From: Voacanga thouarsii
Taxonomy: Eukaryota > Streptophyta > Magnoliopsida > Gentianales > Apocynaceae
Assembly (NCBI GenBank): GCA_026120185.1
Contig: JANUWF010001719.1
Location: 682,001 to 746,000, forward strand
Direction: 5' to 3'
DNA: 64,000 nucleotides
The first letter of the stretch is position 1. Every line of letters starts with the position of its first letter. The position numbers were made by a program, and so were the translations under genes. The notes beneath the pieces were generated by a model, which was given only the letters and a program-made list of their open reading frames with translations, did not search any database and was not told where the DNA came from. Of this stretch, positions 11,687 to 50,189 are shown in pieces.

Positions 11687-13650
11687 GTGTGAATTATATA
11701 TGTGTTGTATATGTATACATATTATATAGATTATACACACACATATTATATATATATTATATATAATTATATATGTATGTAAAAGTATATTATATATGTA
11801 TATAAAATAAAATAAAATAGAAAAAAAGAGAAAAAATAAAAAAATTATCAATTATTAATTTTACTTTTACTAATCTAGTGATATGATAAATACGTGAATT
11901 ATTAGAAACCACTACAAAAGTTTTCTATATGATTAAAAAATTTTGAATAAAAATATATTGGAGGTAAATTTTTTTTTAAAAAAATCTTTATAATTATTTC
12001 CAGGCCCAAATGGGCTCCCGCTTCCCCGTTGGGCCAGGACCGGGGATTATTTTGTCCTTGACGAGCCGAGGGCAGGGATCCCCGCCTTTTCTCATGGCGG
12101 GGACAGACCGGGAATAGAAATATGGGGGCAACTGTAGGGGCGGAGTCAGAATTTCTAGTCCCCAGTCCGACCCGGCTCCATTGTCATCCCTAGCTGTACT
12201 TGCACATTTTACAATTTCCCTTACTTGATTCCTTACTCGTCTAACTCTGTATTGCATTTCTTGTTATTTGTCTTAAATAAGGACCTTATCTAAAGTTAAG
12301 AGGGAAGATAAATTATATGAAATAATATATTAAAATAAATTTTATAAATATTTTTTTAAAAAATTAAAATTTAAAAATAAATATTTTCCACAATATATAA
12401 CAAAAATTCTAAAGCAAAAAATGGCCGACAACTTGCACGTTCTCATATAAACAAAAAGCACATAATCACAAGGGTAATTAAGCATGAAATTTTTGGTGTG
12501 ACTATTTCACCACAAGTTATTTTTGGATTATCTTGGTGCGGATCGTGACATCGGAACAGAGCTATAGCACCGTCAAAATTTTTAAAATTTGTATTTTTTA
12601 CCTTAATAAAATAAAAAATTTTAAAAATTACTTTTTAAAATTTTCTCTTCGTACCTCCAAATTCTTTAATTTATCTTTATATATAATTTGTGCCCAAATC
12701 TCAAACTTCGAATTCCATCGCGTGGTGGAATTCCAAATGCTCCTATCGATGTTGGAAACATGCATTTACATGATGAGGCAAGGCCAGTTTGTCAAGTACA
12801 CTGTGAAACATGTGAAATATATTATTTTATAACCGTGTTATTTTTGGTATATTTTAAGACATATTTAATTCAAGTATTTACCCTAAAAAAAGTGCAATAA
12901 AATTGTTGTATTCTATTCATTATGGTATCATTTTGTTTTAAAAAAGGATGGTACTCAACTGAATGAAAATCCTTCCAAAAGAAAAAAAAAAAGAATGAAT
13001 AAAGAGACCATTAAACGTAACACTATACTAATTACATAATTATTGTATTTAACACATATTCTTATGTGTAAGTCGGGAAGAAACATGCAACTGTTACTGT
13101 TTTGAGTGCATAGTAAATGAAACCTATTTAACACATATTCTTAATAAAACTTTACATAGTCAAATTAACTAACATGAATACTCATCCATAAACTCATAAA
13201 TCATTTATTGGTGAGCATAATAAAATCTTACAAGAAGGGTTTTTTTTTCCCCTCTAATACATCAATTGAGAGAGATATAAAAACTAAAACCTTTGCCTTT
13301 TTGATAAAAATGTTCATATTAACTACTTGAGTTACTAATATTTGACAAAATAACACTTCCTCTATCCAATTTTGAATATCCTATTTTATATTAAATTCTT
13401 ATTGTTGCAATTGAATCTATTCAAACGATTAAAATCAACCTGACAAATAGACCAAAAAAAAAAAAAGAGTGCAATTGTAAATTTCAAAAATTTGAGGTAA
13501 CATTAATTATTAGACAAAAAGATGGAAAAATCACAAAACAATAATATTTAGAGGACAAATAGTTTGATAATCTTAAAACCCGTGTGTGCTGTAGTTGGAT
13601 TTGAAAAAAAAAAAGAATTCATTTTAAAAAAGTAATAAAAATATGAATAT
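10899..13650. other. Intergenic DNA with GC-rich remnants and a TA/CA microsatellite
   Basis: Mostly AT-rich. It contains a small GC island (11000-11030, GCGCCGGCC twice), two GC-rich blocks (11495-11625 and 11995-12195) flanking a TA/CA microsatellite at 11637-11790, and no recognisable coding gene. The right GC block ends in CATTGTCATCCCTA, which resembles the terminal repeat of some plant hAT-like elements. No matching left end was found. Confidence 0.45.
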
Positions 13651-14007
13651 TGTTATAAAATTAGGGTAGTGTTAGAATAAAATCTACACACTACACACTA
13701 AGAAAATTCTAACTATTCTTTGCACAAGAATTTCTCTTCAAACTTCTCTCTTTCTTTCTCTCACAATTCTTTCTCTAATCTTTCTTTCACTAATCTTTCT
13801 TTCACAAAATGATGGTGTATTACAAGCTTAGAGAATAGCTCTATTTATAGAGCTCTAATTAGTGAAATACATCATGGCATACATCATCTTCAATTAATGG
13901 TGTCTCCACTAAATGGTGGACATCCATAAAAATCTTCTAATAATTCACATAAATCCATAATTAGTGGAGCCTCCACTAATTAATGGAGATTCCAATAATT
14001 CATAACA
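13651..14007 (-). repeat. 3' LTR of the copia element
   Basis: 357 bp. By eye it has no difference from the copy at 18643-18999. It contains a CT-rich tract and TATTTATAG. Confidence 0.93.
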
Positions 14008-14131
14008 CTCCCCCTTGGATGTCCATCCATACATAAAGAATATGCCTCGTTAAAACCTTACTAGATAAAAACCCGAGTGGGAAAAAAATCTAGTGAAGGA
14101 AAAAGAGTACACTATTCTATATGTATGTTTA

Positions 14132-16330
14132 TTACTCCCCCTGATGAGATGATTCCTTTAAATCTTTAAACCGACGCATACCGATTTTATATCTCAACTT
14201 CTCAAATGTTGCAGTCGGTAAAGTCTTCGTGAAAATATCTGCGAGGTTGTCACATGACCGAATTTGTAGCACATCAATTTCACCTTTCTTCTGGAGTTCA
14301 TGAGTAAAGAAGAATTTTGGTGAAATATGTTTTGTCCGATCTCCTTTAATATATCATCCTCGTAATTGAGCTATGCAAGCTGCATTGTCTTCATAAAGAG
14401 GAGTTGGAATACCTTTGATTGATGATAATCCACAACTTTCTCGGATATAATGAATCATTGATCTTAGCCATACACATTCTCGACTTGCTTCATGAATGGC
14501 TATAATTTCAGCATTATTTGAAGAAGTAGCTGCTATAGATTGTTTCGTAGAACGCCATGATATAGCAGTATTTTCACATGTAAATAGATAGCCCGTTTGA
14601 GAACGTGCTTTATGTGGATCAGATAAATAACCAGCATCTGCATAACCAATCAATGTTGGGCTGGTTTTATGTGAATAAAATAATCCGAGATCAATTGTAC
14701 CTTGGAGATATCGAAGGACTTGTTTAATTCCATTCCAATGTCGTCGTGTTGGTGAAGAACTAAATCTTGCTAATAAATTGACAATGAAAGTAATATCGAG
14801 CCGTGTGTTATTAGCAAGATACATCAATGCACCAATTGCACTGAGATATGATACTTCAGGACCAAGGAGTTCTTCATCATTTTCTTGAGGTCGGAAAGGA
14901 TCTTTATCCACATTTAATGATCGGACGATCATTGGAATACTCAATGGATGTGCTTTGTCCATGTAAAATCTTTTAGCACTTTTCTTTGTATATGTTGATT
15001 GATGAATAAATGTTCCACTCTCCAAATGTTCAATTTGTAAATCAAGGCAAAATTTGGTTTTACCAAAATCCTTGATTTCGAATTCTCTTTTTAAATAATC
15101 AATTGTTTCTTGGAGCTCTTCAGGAGTTCCAATAAGATTAATATCATCAACATATATAGCTAATATCACAAATTTAGAACCAGATTTCTTAATAAAAACG
15201 CATGGACATACCTGGTCATTTTTAAATCTCGCTTTCAATAAATATTCACTAAGACGTGTAAACCACATGCGCCTGATTGCTTCAGGCCATATAATGATTT
15301 ACGCAACTTGATTGAGTAATTTTCACGAGGATAATGTTTATATGCTTCAGGCATATGAAATCCTTCGAGGATTTTCATGTAAACATCATTTTCTAAATTT
15401 CCATACAAGTAAGCGAGTGACAACATCTAATAGGCGCATATCTATCTTTTCATGTACTTGCCAAACCGATAAGATATCGGAGTGTAATAGCATCAACAAC
15501 AGGAGAATAAGTTTCATCATAATCAATACCGGTCTTTGTGAAAAACCTTGGGCTACTAATCGCGCTTTATATCGAACGATTTCACTCTTTTCATTGCGCT
15601 TTCGCACAAATATCCATTTGTAGCCAACAGATTTTACACCTTCCGGTGTTCGGACTGCAGTCCGAAGACTTCACGTTTTGCCGATGCATTTAACTCCGAT
15701 TGAATCGCATCTTTCCATTGCAGCCAATCTTTTCTATGCCGACATTCATCAACTGATATTGGTTCAGGATCATCATTATCCTGTGTAACATCAAGAGATA
15801 TATTGTATGCAAATATATTATCAATAACAGGTTCTATCCGATTCCAACTTCTACCGGAAGTGGTATGATTGATAGAAATTTCAGTGTTACTTTCATCAAC
15901 TTCTGGTTCTTTGTCATCAGTTCTCTCTTGGTCTTTATCATTTTTTTCTTCAATATGATCTTCTGGATCATTTAATCCTCTTTTCTTTCGAGGATTTTTA
16001 TCTTTAGAACCAAGAGGTCGGCCACGCTTACGGCGTGTTTTTGACTCAACGACTATATGTATAATATTTTGTTCTGCTGGAACTTCAATTCGAATAGGAG
16101 CATTTATAGTCTGGAATATGCGATTTTGTAACTCTTCTGGAGTCAACAAAAGCGTCTGGCATTTGATTTGCAATGCTTTGCAAATGAATTATCTTTTGAA
16201 CTTCAAGTTCACATGCGCTTGTGCGCGGATCAAGATAATGTAATGATGTTGTCCAAGCGAGATCTTCTTTATGCTGTTTTGGTTCTCCCCCTAATTTAGG
16301 GAATAATGATTTCACAAGAGAATAAGAAAA
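14132..16330 (-). pseudogene. copia pol remnant: integrase tail, reverse transcriptase, RNase H
   Basis: Reading on the minus strand from 16330: the integrase C-terminus (LDPRTSACELEVQKIIHLQ, then MPDAFVDSRRVTKSHIP), a Lys/Arg-rich linker with RKRGRPLGSK, then reverse transcriptase ([34 protein letters not shown], the active-site AIYVDDINLIG) and RNase H (GYADAGYLSDPHKARSQTGY, SIAATSSNNAEIIAIHEA). It ends near LADIFTKTLPTATFEKLRY with stop TAA at 14132-14134. It is broken: frameshifts near 15650, 15540 and 15400, and an in-frame TGA just after AQLRG, where related elements have a Gly or Asp before YIKGDRTKHISPKFF. The integrase core and protease are missing. Confidence 0.9.
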
Positions 16331-16570
16331 GAAATATAAGAAAATGATGACAAGCGAGAAAATACCAAGCAAAATATCTCTTTTTTTTTCACTCTTCCCG
16401 TCATCGACTTTTCATCTTCCTCTCTTGTCTTTTCTTCTCCTCCGACCCTCTACCTACCATCTACCTCTTCTTCTTCTTCATACGAGATATATATATATAT
16501 ATATGTATCGATATATATCTCGGTTATCGATCATTAGTAAACATCAAAAACAAAAATCACAAAGCGAGAT

Positions 16571-17969
16571 ATGGAGACTCGTAATTCATTTGAGACATGG
16601 TCAAATTTTGACTTAGTTTCTGCAGCGAGATGTTGATGTATTTTCATTTCCAAACCAACCGCTTTTGCCTAATTCGAACACGAGAAGATTTTGATATGTT
16701 TTCCTTTTCAAACCAACCGCTTCGTCTAATTCGAACGCAGAAGATTTTGATATATTTTCCTTTCCAAACCAACCACTTCCTCCTAATTTCGGGTGAGATA
16801 CCTTTAATGGCTTCCATTTGTTTTTAGTGTGCTTGATAATGAAATTAAACTCTCTTTTGGTTTGTTTTTGATGTAAATCGATGGAAGTTTTGAACATACT
16901 CGCTTTGGACCAAGTTGATCTACCCCTACAAAAGACTCGCTTTTGATACTTGTTCCTCTTGATGCTATTCCTTTGAATGAGGATATGCTTGTGCATGATC
17001 CATTCTATTCTCTAATGGATTTTGAACAAAGTCGAATATGATTCCGGGTTATTATCTATTTAAACATGGATTTTGAATGGTATTACCTTTACTTATATTA
17101 TTTTATTTTTCTAGGAGAAATAATGAGTGGTCTTGACAACGAAGTCGGAGTAAGTACTCATGAAATGCATAATATCGAAGTTCAAGATATTATTGCAGAC
17201 AAAATTCTTGGGGAGAAGAAGATGATTAAGAGGCGAGAGAGAGAAGAAGGGCAATAACTCCCGAGACACTATCAAGAGAAACAATTTCTCAATACTTTTA
17301 CCTACCAATCAAGAGCGCGACCAAAGAATTGAATATTGGCATAACCTGTCTCAAGAAAAGATGTAGGGAGTTAGGAATTCGTCGATGGCCTCACAGGAAG
17401 TTGGTGAGCTTGGAGACCATAATTAAGAATGTTCAGGTTCTCTCTCATACATACTTATAATTTGCAAGTATGAAACTATGAAAGATTTATAAGTAAATAA
17501 CCGATGATATCACTTCGATTTACAGGATATGCAAAATAAAGAAGAAGGAGGACATATGGCTGAGAAGAAATTACAAGAAGCCATTGCGATACTGGAATGT
17601 GAAAAACATTTGGTGGAAGAAAGTCCTAATACGCAGTTAGAGGACCAAACACAGAAATTGAGACAAGCATGCTTCAAGGCCAAATATAATAAGAAATATA
17701 ATAAACTTAAGGAGATCATAAAATCTCAAGACTCATTTCGCAGTAATTTTACGGCTAATTCTGCTGTTAGTCTCGATGCTGGCTCAAAGGGGAAAGAAAA
17801 GGAGGAGGATGTCGAAAAAGAGGAGCTGAAGTCCATAATTTCTAATTGTTTGTCGTCCTCTAATGTAAATATTGAAAAAGAACAATTACGAGCCTTCATC
17901 TTACATTTGTCAGCTCAATTACAAAAGAGCAACTATAAGCATGTATCATCAAGTTCATATGAACACTAG
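16571..17969 (+). pseudogene. RKD-type RWP-RK transcription factor gene inside the copia element
   Basis: Lies on the plus strand, opposite to gag/pol. A likely start ATG (16571) gives METRNSFETWSNFDLV, followed after a frame change by three repeats of a DFDxFSFPNQPL-type unit. Further on, LVPLDAIPLNEDMLVHDPFY and SLMDFEQSRI appear. An exon with acceptor at 17111-17114 runs 17115-17436 and encodes an uninterrupted RWP-RK domain (ETISQYFYLPIKSATKELN, GITCLKKRCRELGIRRWPHR, KLVSLETIIKNVQ). An 89-bp GT-AG intron (17437-17525) joins in phase to 17526-17969, which encodes a coiled-coil zipper (LQEAIAILECEKHLVEE, NTQLEDQTQKLRQACFKAKY) as in RKD proteins, plus an unfamiliar ~80-residue tail. The N-terminal part has stops, and there is a net one-base shift near 17230-17250. 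RKDs act in egg-cell and gametophyte identity. Here it is probably a captured pseudogene, though the DNA-binding half is intact. Confidence 0.85.
16630..16800 (+). repeat. Threefold ~57-60-bp tandem repeat in the RWP-RK gene
   Basis: Three tandem copies of a unit that encodes variants of FSFPNQPL and PNSN when read in the proper frame (copies near 16633, 16687 and 16743). Frame changes between copies explain why no single frame reads through all three. Confidence 0.7.
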
Positions 17970-18039
17970 TGATATGAATAAAAGATGTGATGCTTATTAT
18001 TAATGGAAATATCTTTTTCCCTTATTATCTTTTCTATTC

Positions 18040-18620
18040 CACTTCAGGTGGCCAGTATTTCTCTGTGATAAGGGAAATATCGAGTGTGTCCATGACCATA
18101 ACCACGGCCACTGCCACAACTACAACTATAACGATGGCTTCTGCTGGAGCTAACAGCATTCACTTCTGGGAGTGCTGTTGAGCCAGTTCATCTGGCTTCA
18201 TGATTTCTCAATAATAACTCATGTTAAATTTGTCAATTTTGGATACCCTTTTTCTCGATATTGTTACTGTAGGACATGAAAAGTGGAGAATGTCTTCTCC
18301 AATATAACTTCATCGATAACTTTTTCTCCGTAAAATTTTTAACTAAGATGTAGTTTTATACATCACGGAGTTCACGGTTTTACAATCTTGCAACTTCAGG
18401 TGCAACCATTCATACCGTGCAGTGGGTAGTACGACCATCTTCAGGTGGTCAAATCTTTTTTTTTTTTTTATCCACATGACATATGGATCTCCTTTTTTTT
18501 TAGCATTTAGATGCATTTTTGCATAACATAAAATTTTTTTTTTTTCAGAAATATCAAGGGCTACAAATTCGAATTTAGCGAGATCAATAAATGCGTACCT
18601 GTCTTCTGGCTTTCATAACG
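18040..18620 (-). pseudogene. copia gag remnant
   Basis: Minus-strand pieces match the plant copia gag order: KFEFVALDIS, then AKMHLNA, FDHLKMVVLPTARYEWLHLK, LQDCKT, ILEKTFSTFH, QYREKGYPKLT, and a Gly/Arg-rich end with GSGRGYGHGH. Frameshifts, stops and short deletions separate the pieces. The gag zinc knuckle and everything up to the integrase tail are absent; that space is occupied by the RWP-RK gene at 16571-17969. Confidence 0.75.
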
Positions 18621-18642
18621 GCAGAGACTCGTGCTGATAACG

Positions 18643-18999
18643 TGTTATAAAATTAGGGTAGTGTTAGAATAAAATCTACACACTACACACTAAGAAAATT
18701 CTAACTATTCTTTGCACAAGAATTTCTCTTCAAACTTCTCTCTTTCTTTCTCTCACAATTCTTTCTCTAATCTTTCTTTCACTAATCTTTCTTTCACAAA
18801 ATGATGGTGTATTACAAGCTTAGAGAATAGCTCTATTTATAGAGCTCTAATTAGTGAAATACATCATGGCATACATCATCTTCAATTAATGGTGTCTCCA
18901 CTAAATGGTGGACATCCATAAAAATCTTCTAATAATTCACATAAATCCATAATTAGTGGAGCCTCCACTAATTAATGGAGATTCCAATAATTCATAACA
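18643..18999 (-). repeat. 5' LTR of the copia element
   Basis: 357 bp, same length and apparently the same sequence as the LTR at 13651-14007, which indicates a recent insertion. Confidence 0.93.
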
Positions 19000-19004
19000 A
19001 ATAT

Positions 19005-38329: not shown

Positions 38330-40453
38330 CTAAAAATATAAATTTAAATAAAAATATAGTCTAAAAATTTTTTTATTTCCATAAATCCAATCCTTAGAAC
38401 AAATCAAAGACTCAACAAGATTAGGTGACAAAGAACTTCTAAATTGGTCAAGAACTCTACCACCACTACTAAATGCAGACTCAGAAGCAACTATAGATGC
38501 AGGATCAGTAAGCACATCTCGAACCATTAGAGCTAGCAAAGAGTATCTATACTGATGAGCCTTTCAATAAGATAAAACATCAATCTTAACTGTCCTATCA
38601 ACCCTTAGCTCATCTAAATACAACTCTAACTTAAATTTCTACATATGCTTCATGATATTTTCACTTTCAAAATCATAAAACTCTTATTTTAAAAATTAAA
38701 AATAGAATTAGAAAGCATAAATTAAATTATATATTAACATTATAATATAAATTATAATTATAAAAGATATTATACTTATAAAAAAGTAATAAGTAAAAGA
38801 AATAACCTGTAGAACACTTGAACTTTCTACACTATCTTTCTCTTTGGTAGAGGTTAATTTTGATTATCCCTAAGATGTAGTGCCAGATACTCTAGAAATA
38901 AAAGAAATATTAGTCTTGTATGCTTCAAAGATAGAGAAGAGTTTAGATTTAAGTTTTGAGCACTCCAATTGACCATCAATACCAAAAAATTTCCTATAAT
39001 TAAATTCAACAAATTGCATTTTATACCGAGGATCAAACACAACAATAATGGCCAAAAGTGGGCTGAACTTTTTCCAATACTTATCAAACTTCGAATACAT
39101 GCCAATTGCAATTCTCTTCATGTAGGCATCAGAACTTTTAATTTCTTCTGCCAACCTCAATTGAATCATAAACATATGGGGAAAATAGAGATTGGAAGTA
39201 GGCCTCTTCGCACTAGAAAATGCATTTGTTGCATCATAAAATAATTTCAAGAAACCACATATTTTCTCCACTTTACTCTATTCTTCTTTAGAAGGGTTAT
39301 ACTTGAAATTAGAGTCACTCAATTGCAAATGATAGAAAGCAACCTTATAATGAAGTACACTAACAAGTATCTCATGTGTGGAATTCCATCTTGTAGGAAT
39401 ATCTTGCTTAAGAAATTTTTTAGATTCAAGAAATGTGTGTGTCATACATTCTAAAAACTTTTGTTTTCTTGTTGGTGACCATTTTACATATTTCACAGAT
39501 TCTCTTATCCTCTCAACTGATTCATCAATTTCTTTCAACCCTTCTTTTACAATTAAATTGAGAATATGGGCACAACATCTTACATGAAATAAAGAACCAA
39601 AGTCCAACAAACATCTTTGCAAATTCAACTGATATTTTAAGAGCTCAACATATTAATTGTTTACAGAAGCATTATCTAAAGTTATAGAAAATAACCTTTT
39701 CTTAATTCCCCAACTAGCAACCAAACTATAAATCCTTTCCACAGTCATGTATCCATCTGTAGCTATCGAAGTCCAACAATCAGAAGTTAAGCAAATTCTG
39801 CCGGGACATTATTTAAGTTGAAAAGTTATCTTAGCAATATAATCGGTATGCATATTTTTAATATCTTGCCTCGCAGTATTCCTACTAATATGAGACACAT
39901 CTGGCTCTAAGTAGGAAAATACAGCCTTAATGCCCTCATATTCCACAAAAGATAAAGACAAATCATGTTGTATCACAGCATTAATCAACAACTCCCTAAA
40001 TTTTGCTTGACATAATCTTCTAAATCTAGTATTCATGCTTCCACCACTAGATTCAATGAGCATTTGTCCTATGTCCTTTGAATTAATTCTAGGACATTTC
40101 TTGATATGTTTTTTCATGTTACCTGTCCCATATTTGCTAGCTGAAAGATATGTTTGGCCACAATTCTTACACTTGCATCTTTCTTTTCCATCTTCACCAA
40201 TTGGTAGTAGGTCAAAATATTGCTAAACATTACTTGTGAGCTTTCTTTTATGTTTCTAGCTTGTTTAAGTAGTAGAAGAATCCTTTGAATTTGTACCCTC
40301 TCTGCCATCATTTCCAACCATCTCAACACTTTCATCATATGTGTCACCTTCAAGTTCAACAAACTCTTGCTGTAATTCATTAATTGGTGGTGGAGGTAAC
40401 AATGTATCCATATCTACAATTAGTGAAAAAGACATAATTAACCTCAAATACAC
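38330..40453 (-). pseudogene. hAT transposase (zf-BED / RICESLEEPER type), decayed
   Basis: Begins MDTLLPPPPINELQQEFVE (start near 40413). A BED zinc finger follows (CKCKNCGQTYLSASKYGTG, then MKKHIKKCPRI), then SLSFVEYEGIKAVFSYLEP, DCWTSIATDGYM, HVRCCAHILNLIVKEGL, DIPTRWNSTHEIL, then LLAIIVVFDPRYKM and the C-terminal hAT dimerisation domain (DPASIVASESAFSSGGRVLD, SSLSPNLVESLICSKDWI). The pieces are in the correct order but broken by in-frame stops (for example after KITFQLK, in the LDNASVNN region and after NPSKEE) and frameshifts. Not expected to give active transposase. Confidence 0.9.
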
Positions 40454-48959: not shown

Positions 48960-50189
48960 TTGAGGTATTGTCATGTCACCTTACAGACACAGTGCGTGAC
49001 AATAATAGACAATGATACAGATGTTAAAAGCAAAATCACACCCTTCTCCTATCAAGCCTTGTCATGCTTGCCACCATTGCCCTGGTTTATGTCTTCTCAA
49101 GATCTGGCTAATCCTATGAGGCAGGATTTGAGACACTTGTATATATTCTGTATGGATCCTCTGAGATGCAAGAATATTGATGATGCATTGCACCGTAGGG
49201 CTCTTCCCAATGGAAATTTCGAGGTAGGATGATGTTACTAGCTTTGTTCAACCTAGAATGGTAATGAGATTGCTCAAAGAGCCACCTCATTGGCCTTTGA
49301 GCGTCGCATGGGCATCCTTCCAAAAGTTCTATGAGAAGATATATGCTCTCTTCATGCTGGTGTGGAGAAGGTAGCTTTCTCAGTTATTTGGGAAATAACT
49401 CCTAAAGCTCAAATTATTACTACAAGATATACGAAATGTGTAATCAAGAATTGTGCAACTTTATCTTATGTGTAAGCTCAAGCAACGATGATTTAGCAAA
49501 AAAAAAAAAAAACCTCAAGCAACGATGGACGATAATGGGTTGGTAGATACAATAAGTACAAATTTGCAAATTTTGAATATTTTAGCAAAGACAAAGACGT
49601 ATTGAGAGAGGAGCCAGGATCACATTAATTTCAGAAAGTCATGATCCATTTGATGAAGGATGGGAAGTTAAGCAAATGATTGGAGAGTTGATGCTTGCAA
49701 CTAATGTTTCAGTTGCTGAAAAATTTTTGAAACATTTGCCGGTGTATAAGGTGTTCTCCAATGAAGAAGAGATTGGAACCCTTGCTTTGAATTGTTGCTA
49801 GTGTTAGTGTGAGTTTGGATATAACTTCATCAAAAAATCTAGTTGAATCACTTGATTGTGCTATGGGTAATGATCCTTACATTGATAATTTGATTCGTAC
49901 ACTCGCAATTAGATGTATGAGTCAAGCAGTGTATTTCTGCAGTGGTGAACTCACTCCTGAATATAGCCATTACAATCTTGCAGTTGCTGTGTATACCCAT
50001 TTTACTTCTCCAAACAAAAGATATGCCGATATCATTGCTCACCGTCTAATTGAAGCAACGTTAGGGATAATCAGCAATAGAGATATCTTGCAGAACCAAC
50101 ATCGGATTAGCACTCTTGCTAACAATCTAAATCAACGTCATTGGAGTGGCAAAGCATGCAAGTATTGGTTAATCCTCGCATATGTATGA
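48960..50189 (+). pseudogene. RRP44/DIS3 exosome exoribonuclease, intronless pseudogene
   Basis: RNase II-family segments follow one another without introns: DVKSKITPFSYQALSCLPPL, PWFMSSQDLANPMRQDLRH, CKNIDDALHRRALPNGNFEV, DVTSFVQPR, DICSLHAGVEKVAFSVIWEI, ATLSYV, GELMLATNVSVAEKFLK, then RTLAIRCMSQAVYFCSGELT, YTHFTSPNKRYADIIAHRLI and STLANNLNQRH. The expected Asp-rich catalytic motif appears as CKNIDDALH, where functional proteins have CKDIDDALH. Stops and frameshifts lie near 49235-49260, 49347, 49470, 49590 and 49800. Missing introns suggest a retrocopy. It starts ~95 bp after the CACTA end. Confidence 0.85.

What the first reader, a model, noticed from the sequence alone, without database searches (positions are those of the whole stretch)
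16345..18040. Copia retrotransposon with an RWP-RK (RKD) transcription factor gene in place of protease and integrase
Seen: a ~1.7-kb segment between the gag remnant and the integrase tail, within perfect LTR and target-duplication boundaries, encodes a full RWP-RK domain and the RKD zipper on the strand opposite to gag/pol. It keeps an 89-bp GT-AG intron and probably its own upstream AT-rich promoter. Known: retroelements can transduce host genes, normally as spliced sense copies. Inference: because the gene is antisense to the element RNA, its introns survived reverse transcription, so a regulator of egg-cell identity became mobile with intron and promoter. The DNA-binding and zipper halves are intact, so dominant or small-RNA effects on parent RKD genes are possible.
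Basis: partly seen in the sequence, partly recalled or inferred. Interest (0 to 1): 0.88.

Follow-up and report, generated by a model that had tools for sequence, protein, structure and literature searches.

The report
Jumping gene carrying an egg-cell regulator
A plant retrotransposon here carries an RKD regulator gene, reversed and with an intron, and this RKD sequence recurs about two thousand times in the genome; because RKD genes are known for controlling egg-cell and embryo identity, expressed copies would be likely to touch reproduction, which is untested.

Summary
At 13651-18999 lies a 5.35-kb Copia-type element (identical 357-bp LTRs, 5-bp target duplication). Between a gag remnant and the pol relic it carries, on the opposite strand, an RKD gene: RWP-RK E=6e-22, an 89-bp GT-AG intron, and upstream exons read in sister copies. 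It is not a one-off. Sixteen of 20 fetched genomic matches are complete elements with the same LTRs and order; their LTR pairs differ by 0.008-0.18, so the chimera likely moved over a long time. A word specific to its last exon occurs 1,958 times in the genome, zero times in the reversed control; 79 of 100 listed exon-3 words pair with it, 78 at the intron-retained distance. One sister without RKD (97% identical LTR and pol) has protease- and integrase-region domains where RKD sits. RKD-like loci without these LTRs exist, so host origin is clear; the direct donor was not found. Constraint on the captured frame is suggestive only (omega 0.5-0.8 in RKD exons versus 1.7-2.6 in the pol relic for fixed differences; other tests near neutral). 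The window copy is frame-broken. Expression is untested. New variant of a known kind.

The parts
13646..13650 (.). target-site duplication, AATAT (partner at 19000-19004)
13651..14007 (-). LTR (3' LTR of the minus-strand element), 357 bp
   Evidence: identical to 18643-18999
14008..14037 (-). purine-rich tract next to the 3' LTR (label recalled)
   Evidence: sequence
14132..15670 (-). reverse transcriptase relic (RNase H by position only, profile E=0.18), in several broken frames
   Evidence: RVT_2 3.8e-16 and 7.3e-11; frames
15634..16330 (-). end of the integrase region, after its SH3-like domain; collinear with sister L069 to about 16311-16331
16331..16345 (.). left capture junction (approximate)
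   Evidence: alignment of five chimeric copies with L069
16345..18040 (+). captured RKD gene segment, antisense to the element (edges approximate)
   Evidence: L018 is homologous over nearly all of it and L071 over about 16567-17735, both without these LTRs
16571..16792 (+). RKD exon 1 (end approximate), holding three 57-bp-type repeat units; frame broken in this copy
16919..17038 (+). RKD exon 2 core (boundaries approximate, read from frames)
17115..17436 (+). RKD exon 3 with RWP-RK domain; a frame change lies between the ATG at 17123 and the domain
17437..17525 (+). 89-bp GT-AG intron 3
17526..17969 (+). RKD exon 4 (zipper side), open, ends TAG
18005..18040 (.). right capture junction (approximate), with similar short wording in L018 and sister L069
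18041..18620 (-). gag remnant
   Evidence: collinear pieces, 83-93% alike, in L069
18621..18642 (-). leader with primer-binding-like sequence next to the 5' LTR (label recalled)
   Evidence: sequence
18643..18999 (-). LTR (5' LTR of the element)
19000..19004 (.). target-site duplication, AATAT

Best explanation
The window holds one copy, with identical LTRs, of a Copia-type retrotransposon in which an RKD gene, antisense and with an intron, stands where a sister element has its protease and integrase region; this chimera likely arose by a single capture and was likely spread through the genome by proteins supplied from gag-pol-bearing sister elements. Shown: the same order in 16 of 20 fetched loci, the same junctions in five aligned copies, a word of its last RKD exon about two thousand times in the genome, one RKD-less sister, and RKD loci without these LTRs. 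Inferred: the capture joined an unspliced antisense RKD RNA, or a DNA piece, to the element at short shared wording; the orientation hides its introns from splicing of the element RNA, so they pass through every round of reverse transcription. Inferred: the captured upstream region would act as the gene's own promoter, giving an RKD-like DNA-binding protein. Suggested, not established: the RKD frame was kept under some constraint while pol decayed.
For: Domain and family. LTR identity, target duplication and intron. Of 20 ten-kb loci at RWP-RK matches, 16 are complete LTR-pol-RKD-gag-LTR elements, 2 partial (L010, L013), 2 have no element (L009, L018); 14 of the 16 are 4,978-5,431 bp. Whole-genome word counts: exon-3 word exact 1,570, within one mismatch 2,081; exon-4 word within three mismatches 1,958; reversed controls 0; five loci without the chimera differ from the exon-4 word at 9-12 of 30 places. 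Intron retention: 79 of 100 listed exon-3 words pair with an exon-4 word, 78 at 553-577 bp. LTR word 9,898 times. Sister L069. Repeated moves: LTR pair K2P 0 to 0.18 in 17 elements. Frame constraint: fixed differences among three clades in exons 1, 3 (before the domain) and 4: 38 N, 24 S, 0 stop; two pol stretches 70 N, 13 S, 5 stop; Fisher p 0.001; pairwise spectrum-aware omega 0.35-0.65 in 16 exon-4 pairs and 0.98-1.30 in 5 pol pairs.
Against: Constraint is weak: shared and singleton exon-4 variants look neutral (omega 0.85 and 0.96) and pol RT shared variants gave 0.68, lower than exon 4; exons are no less diverged than intron or pol; a codon model gives 0.74 for exon 4 and 1.09 for pol, but 0.81 and 1.34 for wrong frames of exon 4; the pol control has fewer silent changes than expected, which inflates the contrast. 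Against older copies the exon-4 differences look neutral (27 N, 13 S, 3 stop and 22 N, 5 S, 2 stop). L068 shares the window's frame change, so an intact RKD is not needed in cis. The direct donor was not found; L018 and L071 are only about 72-75% alike to the insert. The helper is not shown: L069's own frames are broken. No expression data. Of the 54 copies in the clade test 33 came from the RWP-RK list, which favours an intact domain.
Confidence: 0.88

Rival explanations
1. Neutral passenger: the RKD gene rode along by accident, is silent and decays like the rest of the element.
For: 10 of 20 exon-4-sampled copies have a broken exon 3; neutral-looking variants and equal divergence of exons, intron and pol; copies with the window's frame change also multiplied.
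Against: 10 of 20 sampled copies keep exon 3 open and 20 of 20 keep exon 4 open, though these 20 were picked for likeness to the window's open exon 4; exon-4 changes between subfamilies show a silent excess while pol is near 1; 0 of 27 fixed exon-4 differences is a stop in the right frame, 4 and 6 of 27 in the wrong frames.
Confidence: 0.5
2. Selected accessory gene: the element keeps RKD because an egg- or embryo-type regulator raises its own expression or transmission in the germ line.
For: Fixed-difference contrast RKD versus pol; an exon-1 acidic-aromatic repeat is present once in L018 and two to four times in the element copies whose exon 1 was read through; parallel with antisense accessory frames of Grande and Retand (PMC7264820, PMC11963269).
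Against: Weak and partly contrary statistics, broken copies still spread, no expression data.
Confidence: 0.3
3. DNA-level capture: an RKD DNA piece was pasted into an element copy by break repair, not by template switching in particles.
For: The intron and an upstream region homologous to L018 are present, and the right junction lies in short similar wording.
Against: Cannot be told apart from RNA capture with the present copies; replacement of a block between gag and pol also fits strand switching.
Confidence: 0.35
4. Nested insertion: another mobile element carrying RKD jumped into the Copia element.
For: RKD copies that are not this chimera are also numerous; two of them were read.
Against: The insert replaces the protease and integrase region rather than adding to it, and no terminal repeats of the insert showed in the repeat scan.
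Confidence: 0.07

Closest known systems
Antisense additional ORFs of plant LTR retrotransposons (maize Grande gene23, rice RIRE2, Silene Retand); PMC7264820 (parts 1 and 2 of 3 read), PMC11963269 (passages)
   Same: Antisense coding region inside an LTR element, kept in many copies, with a predicted nuclear or DNA-binding role.
   Different: Those lie most often between pol and the 3' LTR (the named ones are Ty3/Gypsy; partly recalled), and the review says that genes similar to them are not found outside the elements and that the origin of most is unknown. Here the origin is a recognisable host gene family with introns, it sits between gag and the pol relic, and it replaces the protease and integrase region of a Copia element.
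LTR-retrotransposon gene transduction / retroduplication (maize Bs1; pepper NLR genes, PMC5664825, passages)
   Same: Host gene inside an LTR element. PMC5664825 also found 1,398-3,898 genes inside LTR elements per genome in six species, MADS-box transcription factors among the amplified families, so a regulator inside an LTR element is not new in itself.
   Different: The pepper NLR copies have fewer introns than their parents (86-123 NLRs inside LTR elements per pepper species), and PMC7264820 says transduced genes are usually in the gag-pol sense and in one or a few copies. Here the gene is antisense, keeps its intron, and its sequence is present about two thousand times.
Orchid Ty3/Gypsy elements with an m6A demethylase ORF (PMC9289625, passages)
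   Same: Recent acquisition of a host-type domain kept through several subfamilies.
   Different: A different superfamily and an RNA-modifying enzyme rather than a transcription factor.
RKD transcription factors, for example citrus CitRKD1 (PMC6090715, search listing with start of abstract only)
   Same: RWP-RK domain and the RKD name; by its title a transposon (MITE) insertion there governs RKD expression.
   Different: There the transposon sits at an RKD gene; here the RKD gene is cargo of the transposon.

Membership tests
Ty1/Copia LTR retrotransposon | Paired LTRs starting TG and ending CA, with a 5-bp target duplication | tested here: met
Ty1/Copia LTR retrotransposon | Copia-type reverse transcriptase (RVT_2) | tested here: met
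Ty1/Copia LTR retrotransposon | Integrase region upstream of reverse transcriptase | tested here: met
   order in sister L069: Pol_BBD, frames that read as integrase core (by eye), SH3-like domain, then reverse transcriptase; the window copy keeps only the end of this region
Ty1/Copia LTR retrotransposon | Able to move by its own proteins | tested here: not met
   no protease or integrase core found and broken pol in the window copy; a non-autonomous member
RKD subfamily of RWP-RK transcription factors | RWP-RK domain above the curated cut-off | tested here: met
RKD subfamily of RWP-RK transcription factors | Closest relatives named RKD, not NLP | tested here: met
RKD subfamily of RWP-RK transcription factors | Expression and action in egg cell or early embryo | not testable with these tools
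   no expression data
Retrogene / transduced gene of LTR elements | Introns lost | tested here: not met
   intron 3 kept in the window and, by spacing, in 78 of 79 paired places
Retrogene / transduced gene of LTR elements | Same sense as gag-pol | tested here: not met
Antisense additional ORF (Grande/Retand type) | Antisense frame in most copies of a family | tested here: inconclusive
   of 32 listed LTR-word pairs, 16 hold the exact exon-3 word and at least 2 more the exon-4 word
Antisense additional ORF (Grande/Retand type) | Placed between pol and the 3' LTR | tested here: not met
   it lies between the gag remnant and the pol relic

The most novel reading that the evidence does not exclude
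A retrotransposon family has turned an egg-cell regulator into its own accessory gene: RKD, kept with introns and promoter by lying antisense, switches on a germ-line-like state that favours the element, and has been multiplied about two-thousandfold, making this plant's genome a store of mobile reproductive regulators.
Probability: 0.25. Interest if true: 0.95.

Novelty: new variant of a known kind. Interest (0 to 1): 0.82.

Why it matters
A 2020 review leaves open where most antisense accessory frames of plant LTR elements come from, and says that transduced genes are usually sense and in one or a few copies (PMC7264820). Here the host gene family, an RKD-less sister, the junctions and a series of copies of different age sit in one genome, so the origin, spread and possible selection of such a frame can be followed step by step. 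It also gives a direct test of whether a reproductive regulator can serve a retrotransposon.

Tried and rejected
Assembly join or single accident: rejected. Strong purifying selection from simple Nei-Gojobori ratios (0.20-0.79 for exon 4, 0.52-1.11 for pol): not accepted as such, because the method ignores the mutation spectrum; a spectrum-aware simulation gave 0.35-0.65 for exon 4 and 0.98-1.30 for pol, and other tests were near neutral or mixed. In one search the exon-3 stretch before the domain was scored in the window's shifted frame, so that line is void; one search repeated it with L027 as reference. The RWP-RK stretch itself (4 N, 7 S, omega 0.27) was left out of the combined test because many copies were found through it. 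L018 as the direct donor: not accepted; about 75% alike, with an in-frame stop and a changed splice site (read). LTR DNA search: empty, as common words are skipped; the word count was used instead. PDB search of the RKD product: no match. Plant species: not settled; RKD relatives point to asterids, with Nyssa nearest for L071. Literature: seven searches showed, by title and start of abstract, no paper on RKD capture by a retrotransposon in the held open-access library; most subscription papers are missing from it.

Full report
What is in the window. A Copia-type element lies on the minus strand at 13651-18999 (5,349 bp). Its two 357-bp LTRs are identical and are flanked by AATAT on both sides. 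The LTR starts TG and ends CA, a purine tract precedes the 3' LTR, and a primer-binding-like leader follows the 5' LTR (labels recalled). Reverse transcriptase is present but broken into several frames. Between the pol relic and the gag remnant, on the plus strand, lies an RKD gene: RWP-RK at 6.1e-22, then an 89-bp GT-AG intron at 17437-17525, then an open exon ending TAG at 17969. The 120 listed protein matches, of 476, are 45-69% identical, and the gene-like names among them are mostly RKD1/2/3. Reading other copies shows two more exons upstream, one starting METRNSFETWSNFD (ATG at 16571 in the window) and one holding HDPFYSLMDFEQS; their splice sites are read from frames, not proven. In this copy exon 1 and the start of exon 3 are out of frame with the rest.

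It is a family. The genome (1.35 Gb, 1,848 contigs) gave 3,618 first-look candidates for the RWP-RK profile, of which the best 150 were scored, all as matches. Of 20 ten-kb stretches fetched at such matches, 16 are complete LTR-pol-RKD-gag-LTR elements in the same order, two are partial (L010, which also holds a separate RKD-like gene, and L013), and two (L009, L018) have no element. Fourteen of the 16 measure 4,978-5,431 bp; L011 and L015 are longer. LTR pairs differ by K2P 0 in the window and by 0.008 to 0.18 in the 16 others. Five-base target duplications were read directly in the window and in L021, L025, L026, L027 and L028 (two of these in AT repeats); for the other 11 the script did not place the LTR ends exactly. 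At about 1.3e-8 changes per site per year (recalled, from grasses) 0.18 would mean about 7 million years; the host's real rate is unknown.

Copy number. A 26-base exon-3 word occurs 1,570 times exactly and 2,081 times within one mismatch, but RKD loci such as L018 and L071 lie one mismatch away, so the second count mixes both kinds. A 30-base word near the end of exon 4, from which the five loci without the chimera (L009, L018, L069, L070, L071) differ at 9-12 places, is found within three mismatches in 43 of the other 59 loci held at that time, window included (L030 and L031 among the 59 may not be elements). In the genome it occurs 1,958 times, the reversed control 0 times; 1,958 is therefore likely an undercount. 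An LTR word occurs 9,898 times. Of the 100 exon-3 places listed, 79 pair with one of 95 typed exon-4 places: 78 lie 553-577 bp apart, as expected with the intron in place, and one 502; 21 did not pair. Some of the 79 belong to one tandem array on C198.

What was replaced. From 91 of the 100 listed LTR-word places and 29 of the 100 listed exon-3 places that I compared, 32 neighbouring LTR pairs lie 4-6 kb apart: 16 hold the exact exon-3 word (4,698-5,069 bp apart) and 16 do not. Of these 16, ten are 5,199-5,248 bp apart, at least two do hold the exon-4 word, and one spans the gap between two elements. One of the ten, L069, was read. It matches the window at 97% through LTR and pol up to 16311, at 98.5% through the 5' LTR and leader, and at 83-93% in gag pieces. 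Between them it has a Pol_BBD domain (4e-9) and a retroviral SH3-like domain (7.5e-13), with frames between that read as the integrase core (by eye). So the RKD segment stands in for roughly 1.75-1.8 kb. Five aligned chimeric copies share both junctions, with small indels at the left one. At the right edge L018 and L069 share similar wording, which fits strand switching or end joining at short homology; this is not proof.

Origin. L018 has no LTR of this kind and is homologous to nearly all of the insert, at about 75% over its main part. L071 is homologous over about 16567-17735 at 72%. L018 has an in-frame stop and a changed splice site, so it looks like a pseudogene. Neither is the direct donor. 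A search with an RKD of Nyssa (P0007) gave 207 matches, 129 of 6,588 candidates being scored. About the first 60 listed rows run past the intron-3 site, for instance 148 residues in 444 bp at C694, which leaves no room for the intron; L070 shows exons 3 and 4 joined while the region of introns 1 and 2 is kept. Other rows break at the site, as in L071. RKD sequence has therefore likely spread in this genome by more than one route.

Was the frame kept? Of 20 copies chosen by exon-4 similarity to the window, 10 keep exon 3 open from its ATG through the domain (2 of these 10 lack the exact splice-donor wording), and all 20 keep exon 4 open. Fixed differences among three clades (54 copies: 33 from the RWP-RK list, 20 from exon-4 similarity, and the window; the older L013, L015, L045 and the loci L018, L030, L031 were left out) give, for exons 1, 3 (before the domain) and 4, 38 replacement, 24 silent and 0 stop changes (expected silent 16.6; P 0.026; P of no stop 0.037). 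Single exons are not significant (P 0.34, 0.12, 0.08). Two pol stretches, from at most 18 copies, give 70, 13 and 5; Fisher p 0.001. In the pairwise, spectrum-aware test 16 exon-4 pairs give 0.35-0.65 and 5 pol pairs 0.98-1.30; pairs share branches. Against this: variants inside the sample look neutral in exon 4 (0.85, 0.96) while pol RT shared variants gave 0.68; exons are as diverged as intron and pol; differences from the oldest copies look neutral; the codon model gives 0.74 for exon 4 against 0.81 and 1.34 for its wrong frames and 1.09 for pol; and the pol control itself has fewer silent changes than expected. I call constraint possible, not shown. L068 shares the window's frame change and is its sister in the tree, so broken copies can still be spread.

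How it likely works. The window copy lacks protease and integrase, so movement must have been in trans (inferred); L069-type sisters are the natural helpers, although L069 itself is broken. Because RKD lies antisense, its introns are not read as introns in the element RNA and survive copying (inferred). Whether the gene is expressed is unknown.

What is known. A review of additional ORFs (PMC7264820; parts 1 and 2 of 3 read) says that transduced genes are usually sense and in one or few copies, that such frames lie most often between pol and the 3' LTR, and that the origin of most antisense ones is unknown. Passages on Retand (PMC11963269), pepper (PMC5664825, which also reports many genes, MADS-box regulators among them, inside LTR elements) and orchids (PMC9289625) give the nearest cases. 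Seven library searches listed nothing on RKD capture by title or abstract start.

Mended on checking: the identity range, the count of 5.2-kb pairs (ten, not eleven), the extent of L071, the make-up of the clade test, and the domains of L069, now tested by profile.

Noticed in passing
G000:C861:674501 (L025), about 7.5 kb before the window starts: Another RKD-bearing element of the same family on the same contig, with LTR pair K2P 0.008 and AGGTA target duplication.
   Followed up: yes
G000:C198:1600686-1604359: Six exon-3 words and six exon-4 words at 616-617-bp steps: a tandem array made of part of the RKD segment.
   Followed up: no
L070 (C575:908900-914199) and about the first 60 listed rows: A second RKD population in which exons 3 and 4 are joined without intron 3 (L070 keeps the region of introns 1 and 2); no direct repeats found in the 5.3 kb read.
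   Followed up: partly
L071 (C591:1749300-1754299) and similar rows: RKD loci that break at intron 3 and carry no LTR of this family (one read); the RKD family appears strongly expanded in this plant.
   Followed up: partly
window 16628-16788; L014, L016, L017, L018, L021, L026-L028: A 57-bp-type repeat in exon 1 encoding EDFDMFSFPNQPLP-like units: one in L018, two to four in the element copies read through (by eye; the stricter pattern counts one to four).
   Followed up: partly
window 38873-40222: Minus-strand frames of a hAT-type transposase: hAT-like_RNase-H 7.2e-27, and a weak zf-BED match below its cut-off.
   Followed up: partly
window 49791-50186: Plus-strand frame matching the RNB exonuclease domain, 1.6e-17.
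   Followed up: partly
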